64,000 bases of DNA, from positions 62,001 to 126,000 of the forward strand of contig JABLWZ010000019.1 of assembly GCA_013178275.1 (NCBI GenBank), written 5' to 3'. Below the pieces are notes generated by a model that did no database searches, was not told where the DNA came from, and worked only from the letters and a program-made list of their open reading frames with translations. Both the position numbers and the translations under genes were made by a program. This stretch comes from Bacillota bacterium (lineage in GTDB: Bacteria > Bacillota > Ch66 > Ch109). This document shows, in pieces, positions 48,351 through 48,554 of the stretch; the stretch's first letter is position 1, and each line of letters starts with the position of its first letter.

Positions 48351-48554
48351 TTAAGCGTTTTTCTTCGGTTCCAGGAGGTTTAGGTCATCCATCAGGTTCT
48401 TGATGTTTATCCCATGCATTTGAGCACCCTGCTCAATACTCTCAAAGAGAGCGCCGCCTCAGCCTACGCACCGCAGGCCGTGTTTGGCGAATACCCTGAG
48501 TGACTCGGGGTACTTGTCGACCACATCTTTGATGATCATGTTCTTTTCGATCAT
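48351..48554 (-). CDS. DUF1858-type small redox protein with in-frame TGA, candidate selenoprotein
   Basis: Minus strand: MIEKNMIIKDVVDKYPESLRVFAKHGLRCVG-[TGA]-GGALFESIEQGAQMHGINIKNLMDDLNLLEPKKNA*; SD GGAGGTGA before ATG; TGA at 48459-48461. Confidence 0.8.
48420..48436 (-). promoter_or_regulatory. Candidate bacterial SECIS hairpin
   Basis: TTGAGC-AGGGT-GCTCAA, ~28 nt 3' of the TGA on the minus strand; apical loop with G in the first two positions. Confidence 0.6.

What the first reader, a model, noticed from the sequence alone, without database searches (positions are those of the whole stretch)
48351..48554. Candidate new selenoprotein: DUF1858-type protein with Sec (TGA) in a CxxU redox motif
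The minus strand encodes a 67-residue protein with perfect SD (GGAGGTGA) and sensible N- and C-termini, interrupted once by TGA exactly where DUF1858 proteins normally carry the second Cys (..HGLRCVG[TGA]GGALFESIEQGA..). After the TGA (~28 nt) lies TTGAGC-AGGGT-GCTCAA, a stable hairpin with a G-containing mini-loop in the bacterial SECIS distance window. The window also encodes a selenouridine synthase (mnmH), so selenophosphate is probably made. I do not know of a described Sec-containing DUF1858 protein.
Basis: partly seen in the sequence, partly recalled or inferred. Interest (0 to 1): 0.85.

Follow-up and report, generated by a model that had tools for sequence, protein, structure and literature searches.

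The report
DUF1858 selenoprotein gene with SECIS hairpin
A small bacterial redox-type protein gene is interrupted by a UGA codon that is almost certainly read as selenocysteine; the evidence is strong, but selenocysteine-containing members of this family have already been catalogued, so this is a well-supported new member and not a new family.

Summary
Window 48351-48554 (-) is a 67-codon DUF1858/TIGR03980 gene with one in-frame TGA at codon 32, the column where every Cys homolog found carries the second Cys of CxxC. Three results make read-through as selenocysteine close to certain. (1) The same TGA recurs in 29 non-redundant loci from many genera and families. (2) A 5-bp core stem with a GGG or GGC loop, 29 nt after the UGA, is intact in 28 of 29 TGA genes but in 1 of 78 Cys genes, with compensatory changes and far beyond what synonymous codon choice predicts. 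(3) The window's own genome encodes selA-selB, selD (itself with in-frame TGA) and tRNA-Sec(UCA). The novelty claim fails: DUF1858 with CxxU is already listed as a predicted selenoprotein family in two reviews (PMC9312934, PMC13188914). This is a new member of a known kind. Most likely function: small thiol/selenol redox protein, related in fold to the N-terminal domain of the RIC (ScdA/YtfE) proteins; partner unknown. In passing I found two arrangements not in that inventory: UxxC DUF1858 and CU-type ScdA_N/DUF1858-like proteins, the latter with the same SECIS hairpin.

The parts
48351..48554 (-). Sec-containing DUF1858 (TIGR03980) coding sequence, 67 residues with U32
   Evidence: homologs with the same TGA
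48459..48461 (-). in-frame UGA read as selenocysteine (second position of CxxU)
   Evidence: Cys at this column in all 78 non-redundant non-TGA loci
48468..48470 (-). Cys29 codon (TGC), first position of CxxU
   Evidence: invariant in alignment A4
48420..48436 (-). bacterial SECIS-type hairpin: 7 potential pairs, GGG apical loop at 48429-48427, loop 29 nt after the UGA
   Evidence: meets the bSECIS constraints quoted in PMC13188914
48559..48566 (-). Shine-Dalgarno sequence GGAGGTGA
   Evidence: sequence
48609..48638 (-). promoter-like site CTGGCA-18-TATAAT; consensus match only
   Evidence: 1 found, 0.9 expected by shuffling, so weak
48265..48293 (.). GC-rich perfect inverted repeat downstream of the gene, possible terminator between it and the convergent neighbour
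48997..49899 (+). divergent radical SAM gene, conserved next to the Sec-DUF1858 gene in 13 Sec loci; functional link not shown
29114..30154 (+). mnmH, tRNA 2-selenouridine synthase (an independent use of selenophosphate)

Best explanation
The gene encodes a small DUF1858 (TIGR03980) selenoprotein. During translation SelB carrying Sec-tRNA(UCA) binds the hairpin at 48436-48420 and inserts selenocysteine at the UGA at 48461-48459, giving a Cys29-x-x-Sec32 pair. The pair sits between the second and third helix of a small helical domain and most likely cycles between selenenylsulfide and thiol/selenol as a small redox carrier or reductase. The relation in sequence and fold to the N-terminal domain of the RIC (ScdA/YtfE) proteins suggests that the client chemistry involves iron-sulfur or nitrosative damage. 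Shown by computation: coding on both sides of the UGA, conserved UGA/Cys exchange, conserved covarying hairpin, complete Sec machinery in the same genome. Inferred: actual Sec insertion and redox cycling. Guess: the client. The confidence given is for the selenoprotein reading; for the redox role I would say about 0.7 and for the iron-sulfur/nitrosative client about 0.3.
For: Family match across the UGA. Same-place TGA in all four genomes of the class; 23 of 400 sampled genomes of the phylum have a TGA-bearing match, and 22 of those 23 have SelA against 255 of 400 overall, Fisher p 5e-4, not corrected for relatedness. 29 TGA against 78 Cys loci: intact 5-bp core stem 28/29 against 1/78, mean pairs 6.7 against 4.3 of 7. 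Keeping amino acids and resampling synonymous codons gives 4.46 +/- 0.19 pairs for the Sec set; 0 of 2000 reach the observed 6.72. Covariation on 20 distinct Sec sequences: 95.7% of cells paired, both-side changes in 2 pairs and 13 cells, 0/500 shuffles as high on cells paired and covariation score, slid controls 23-43% paired. The residue after EQGA always has a codon starting with C in Sec genes (29/29), as the stem needs, against 52/78 in Cys genes. Differences fall mainly at third codon positions after the TGA as before it. selA, selB, selD, tRNA-Sec; tRNA-Sec in all four genomes of the class. Fold: pLDDT 88, best PDB matches 2k5e, 2k53, 2fi0, then YtfE 5fnn.
Against: No protein-level evidence of Sec. 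The genome is an assembly in 55 contigs with 6.4% estimated contamination; tRNA-Sec, selAB and the window lie on different contigs, and the 6 kb around the intact tRNA-Sec has lower G+C (0.43) than the window (0.57). One TGA homolog, L144, lacks the hairpin. No direct evidence for the client or for redox activity.
Confidence: 0.96

Rival explanations
1. A nonsense mutation, or a sequencing or assembly error, in an ordinary Cys gene.
For: A single base separates TGA from TGT or TGC; the genome also has two intact Cys paralogs that could make this copy dispensable.
Against: The same TGA in 29 non-redundant loci, all but two of which (27 of those in the tree) form one well supported group (UFBoot/SH-aLRT 99/90) with the two own Cys paralogs nested in it; the hairpin is kept; synonymous-type differences continue after the TGA.
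Confidence: 0.01
2. TGA is reassigned to tryptophan (or another residue) in this lineage.
For: A public homolog is stored as CIGW, that is with TGA read as Trp by a gene caller (P0003).
Against: TGA ends 13 of 37 larger window genes; other TGA-containing genes seen in the genome are two selD genes, a known selenoprotein family; the residue in homologs is Cys, not Trp.
Confidence: 0.01
3. The UGA mainly acts as a selenium-dependent switch: a 31-residue peptide ending before the UGA is made when selenium is short, and the Cys paralogs then take over.
For: Own genome keeps one Sec copy and two Cys copies that fall inside the Sec group; their hairpin remnant has its base broken (TCGAGCAGGGTGCTAAA).
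Against: The C-terminal half is under protein-level constraint in all relatives, so the full-length protein matters; the Cys paralogs sit in another gene context, so they need not be back-ups.
Confidence: 0.05
4. It is a selenoprotein, but Sec32 serves as a ligand (selenium or metal carrier, for example in selenide delivery or Fe-S repair) and not as half of a redox pair.
For: A Cys paralog of the same genome lies near selD and a YedF-like gene on C23; the fold is related to the N-terminal domain of RIC proteins.
Against: CxxU spacing and strict Cys/Sec exchange are typical of thiol redox motifs (established knowledge); no further Cys is conserved in the protein.
Confidence: 0.2

Closest known systems
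DUF1858 domain-containing selenoprotein (PF08984, CxxU; WP_012065717.1) in PMC9312934 and PMC13188914
   Same: Same domain, same CxxU motif, Sec at the second position.
   Different: No difference in kind seen; the representative sequence itself could not be fetched here, so identity to it was not measured. The SECIS conservation, clade structure and neighbourhood given here were not found in the texts searched.
TIGR03980, hybrid cluster protein-associated redox disulfide domain (Cys form; solved relatives 2k53, 2k5e)
   Same: Same family by score and fold; CxxC becomes CxxU.
   Different: Sec replaces the second Cys, and a SECIS hairpin is embedded in the codons for EQGA and the next residue.
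N-terminal domain (ScdA_N, DUF542) of RIC proteins ScdA and YtfE
   Same: Weak sequence match (ScdA_N 19.5 bits, below cut-off 32.5) and related fold (5fnn).
   Different: RIC proteins carry a C-terminal di-iron domain and a CC motif; this is a standalone domain with CxxU.

Membership tests
Bacterial selenoprotein (SelB/SECIS-dependent) | in-frame UGA aligned with Cys in homologs | tested here: met
Bacterial selenoprotein (SelB/SECIS-dependent) | SECIS: 3-9 nt loop, 4-16 bp stem, G in first two loop positions, 16-37 nt from UGA to loop (constraints as quoted in PMC13188914) | tested here: met
   3-nt loop GGG, 6 bp in the MFE fold (7 potential), 29 nt
Bacterial selenoprotein (SelB/SECIS-dependent) | selA, selB, selC, selD in the genome | tested here: met
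Bacterial selenoprotein (SelB/SECIS-dependent) | selenium actually incorporated | not testable with these tools
   needs 75Se labelling or mass spectrometry
DUF1858 / TIGR03980 | profile score over the curated cut-off | tested here: met
   67.1 against 32.2 and 78.6 against 44.95 bits (with C for U)
DUF1858 CxxU selenoprotein subfamily | Sec at the second position of CxxC | tested here: met
DUF1858 CxxU selenoprotein subfamily | direct similarity to the published representative WP_012065717.1 | not tested
   sequence not available in the collections used
RIC (ScdA/YtfE) protein | C-terminal di-iron hemerythrin-like domain | tested here: not met
   67 residues, one domain

The most novel reading that the evidence does not exclude
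DUF1858/ScdA_N-like small proteins use selenocysteine in at least three arrangements on one scaffold: CxxU (as in the window), UxxC (Sec at the first Cys; three genomes of one family), and CU (Sec in the same column as in CxxU but with the partner Cys directly before it; three genomes, with the same hairpin at the same distance). The last two are not in the 119-entry inventory of PMC13188914 and would be undescribed subfamilies.
Probability: 0.6. Interest if true: 0.45.

Novelty: new member of a known kind. Interest (0 to 1): 0.3.

Why it matters
It adds a computationally very well supported member, with a conserved SECIS, to a selenoprotein family that so far is only predicted and has no known function. 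Gene callers truncate or mistranslate these genes: public copies are stored as a 40-residue stub or with Trp at the UGA. The conserved pairing with a radical SAM gene, the Cys paralogs beside L-serine dehydratase genes, and the relation to RIC N-terminal domains give testable leads to the function.

Tried and rejected
Nonsense mutation or error, and TGA=Trp recoding: rejected (see rivals). Another kind of structured RNA: Rfam at gathering threshold finds only a tRNA in the window. Folding the 76-nt region alone is weak evidence (z -1.75); the comparative test was needed, and RNAfold on single homologs often prefers other folds. G035 was first counted as a stop-containing homolog (TAA), but the TAA is just the gene's end (L145). 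Literature search for DUF1858 gave no functional study of the standalone protein; it shows a DUF1858 gene under NnrR control in denitrification (PMC6710368), DrpB of nitrate respiration (PMC6282519) and fusion to SufT (PMC4982691). The main texts of the 2008 and 2016 papers cited by the reviews do not use the word DUF1858, so the first description could not be pinned down; supplements were not open.

Full report
What is there. On the minus strand at 48554-48351 an ATG preceded by GGAGGTGA opens a 67-codon frame with one TGA at codon 32. Read through, the protein scores above the curated cut-offs of TIGR03980 and PF08984, and the match spans the TGA.

Is it selenocysteine? The genome that holds the window (4.77 Mb, 55 contigs) has adjacent selA and selB on C14, two selD genes that each carry one in-frame TGA, and a tRNA-Sec with UCA anticodon on C1. 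All four sampled genomes of the class have a DUF1858 gene with the TGA, selA and tRNA-Sec. In 400 genomes drawn from the phylum, 221 have a match to this protein and 23 have one with a TGA; 22 of these 23 have SelA, the exception being a 75% complete genome.

The TGA column. Among oriented loci from the genome search and genome contigs, 29 non-redundant genes have TGA at the second position of CxxC and 78 have Cys there; three more have TGA in other arrangements. Differences between close relatives are concentrated in third codon positions both before and after the TGA, so the downstream half is translated. TGA is an ordinary stop for 13 of 37 larger window genes, which excludes recoding to Trp.

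The SECIS. A stem TNGAGCA/TGCTCNA with loop GGG or GGC starts 22 nt after the UGA, the loop 29 nt after it. Its five core pairs are complete in 28 of 29 Sec genes and in 1 of 78 Cys genes. When E becomes G in the protein (EQGA to GQAA) the paired base changes with it (A-U to G-C), and the next outer pair appears as U-A, C-G, U-G and A-U. A control that keeps the amino acids and resamples synonymous codons gives 4.46 pairs against 6.72 seen (0 of 2000 as high). The Cys set lies only slightly above its own control, 4.29 against 3.99, with 10 of 2000 as high. The element fulfils the bSECIS constraints quoted in PMC13188914 for loop size, stem, loop G and spacing. One Sec gene, L144, lacks it.

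History. In a protein tree (short alignment, 65 columns, many forks unresolved) 27 CxxU genes form one supported group (99/90). The two Cys paralogs of the window's own genome fall inside it and keep most of the hairpin, with its base broken. They are best read as Sec-to-Cys conversions after duplication. The tree also places the UxxC genes and L144 apart, so Sec was gained, or lost, more than once.

Context. The gene stands alone between a convergent 168-residue ORF with guaB beyond it and a divergent radical SAM gene followed by degV and a PhoU-like gene. The radical SAM gene lies divergently upstream in 13 Sec loci, at times with other genes in between (by eye: nudix, fur, feoAB), and near none of the 78 Cys loci. 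Shared chromosomal order (guaB, nlpC) in the same clade means that this may be inherited synteny only. The Cys paralogs lie beside L-serine dehydratase genes, and the one on C23 near selD and a YedF-like gene; these names rest on my reading of the sequence, except selD. A hybrid cluster protein gene exists in the genome but not beside this gene.

Function. The AlphaFold model (pLDDT 88) has helices 8-14, 18-24, 40-46 and 51-59 with the CxxU in the segment between the second and third; best solved matches are the DUF1858 proteins 2k5e and 2k53, then 2fi0 and YtfE; a profile search also finds ScdA. In ScdA, C30 and C31 of the N-terminal domain are two of the three Cys that may form intermolecular disulfides, and the domain boosts the nitrite reductase activity of the C-terminal domain (PMC12412097). 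I infer a thiol/selenol redox role, perhaps in iron-sulfur or nitrosative chemistry; this step is not shown.

Novelty. The family is catalogued: DUF1858 domain-containing protein, CxxU, in PMC9312934 and PMC13188914. The window gene is a new member. What is not in that list: UxxC DUF1858 in three genomes (L178, L181, L183), and CU proteins in L032, L033 and L203, of which L032 and L033 score on both ScdA_N and DUF1858, with the hairpin at the same spacing. They deserve their own check.

Noticed in passing
L178, L181, L183 (G373, G407, G411): DUF1858 genes with TGA at the FIRST Cys of the motif (UxxC), in close relatives of CxxC genes; a possible hairpin GGCTTT-ATTTG-AAAGCC (or its GAGAGCC version) follows in two of them. 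Not in the PMC13188914 inventory.
   Followed up: partly
L032:1474-1680, L033:1495-1692, L203 (G002, G003, G417): Standalone ScdA_N/DUF1858-like domains with a CU motif (SC[TGA] or GC[TGA]) and the same SECIS-like hairpin at the same distance as in the window gene. Not in the PMC13188914 inventory.
   Followed up: partly
L196-L199, L202, L204-L206: A shorter DUF1858-like TGA group (CLG[TGA] followed by SASWMTLEQAA or similar) with the EQAA-coded hairpin closer to the TGA.
   Followed up: no
L146:1260-1353 (G000:C14:8259-8352, -): A 5' fragment of tRNA-Sec, identical to the intact C1 copy over its first 58 bases, lies about 8 kb from selA, where relatives G001 and G003 have their intact gene on the same contig as selA; the intact gene is on C1 in a low G+C stretch. 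Suggests relocation or an integration event at selC.
   Followed up: partly
L018, L019 (G000:C1:51560 and C23:143036): Two selD genes, each with one in-frame TGA (selenoprotein SelD).
   Followed up: no
L031 and L034 (G000:C23 and C34): Two nearly identical Cys DUF1858 paralogs beside duplicated L-serine dehydratase-like genes, with remnants of the SECIS hairpin.
   Followed up: partly
L207 (G006:C2:360764-360925) and L194 (G441): DUF1858-like frames with TGA but no Cys at the usual partner position.
   Followed up: no
window 43814-45010 (+): A transposase-like ORF (IS110-type by eye), about 4 kb from the gene.
   Followed up: no
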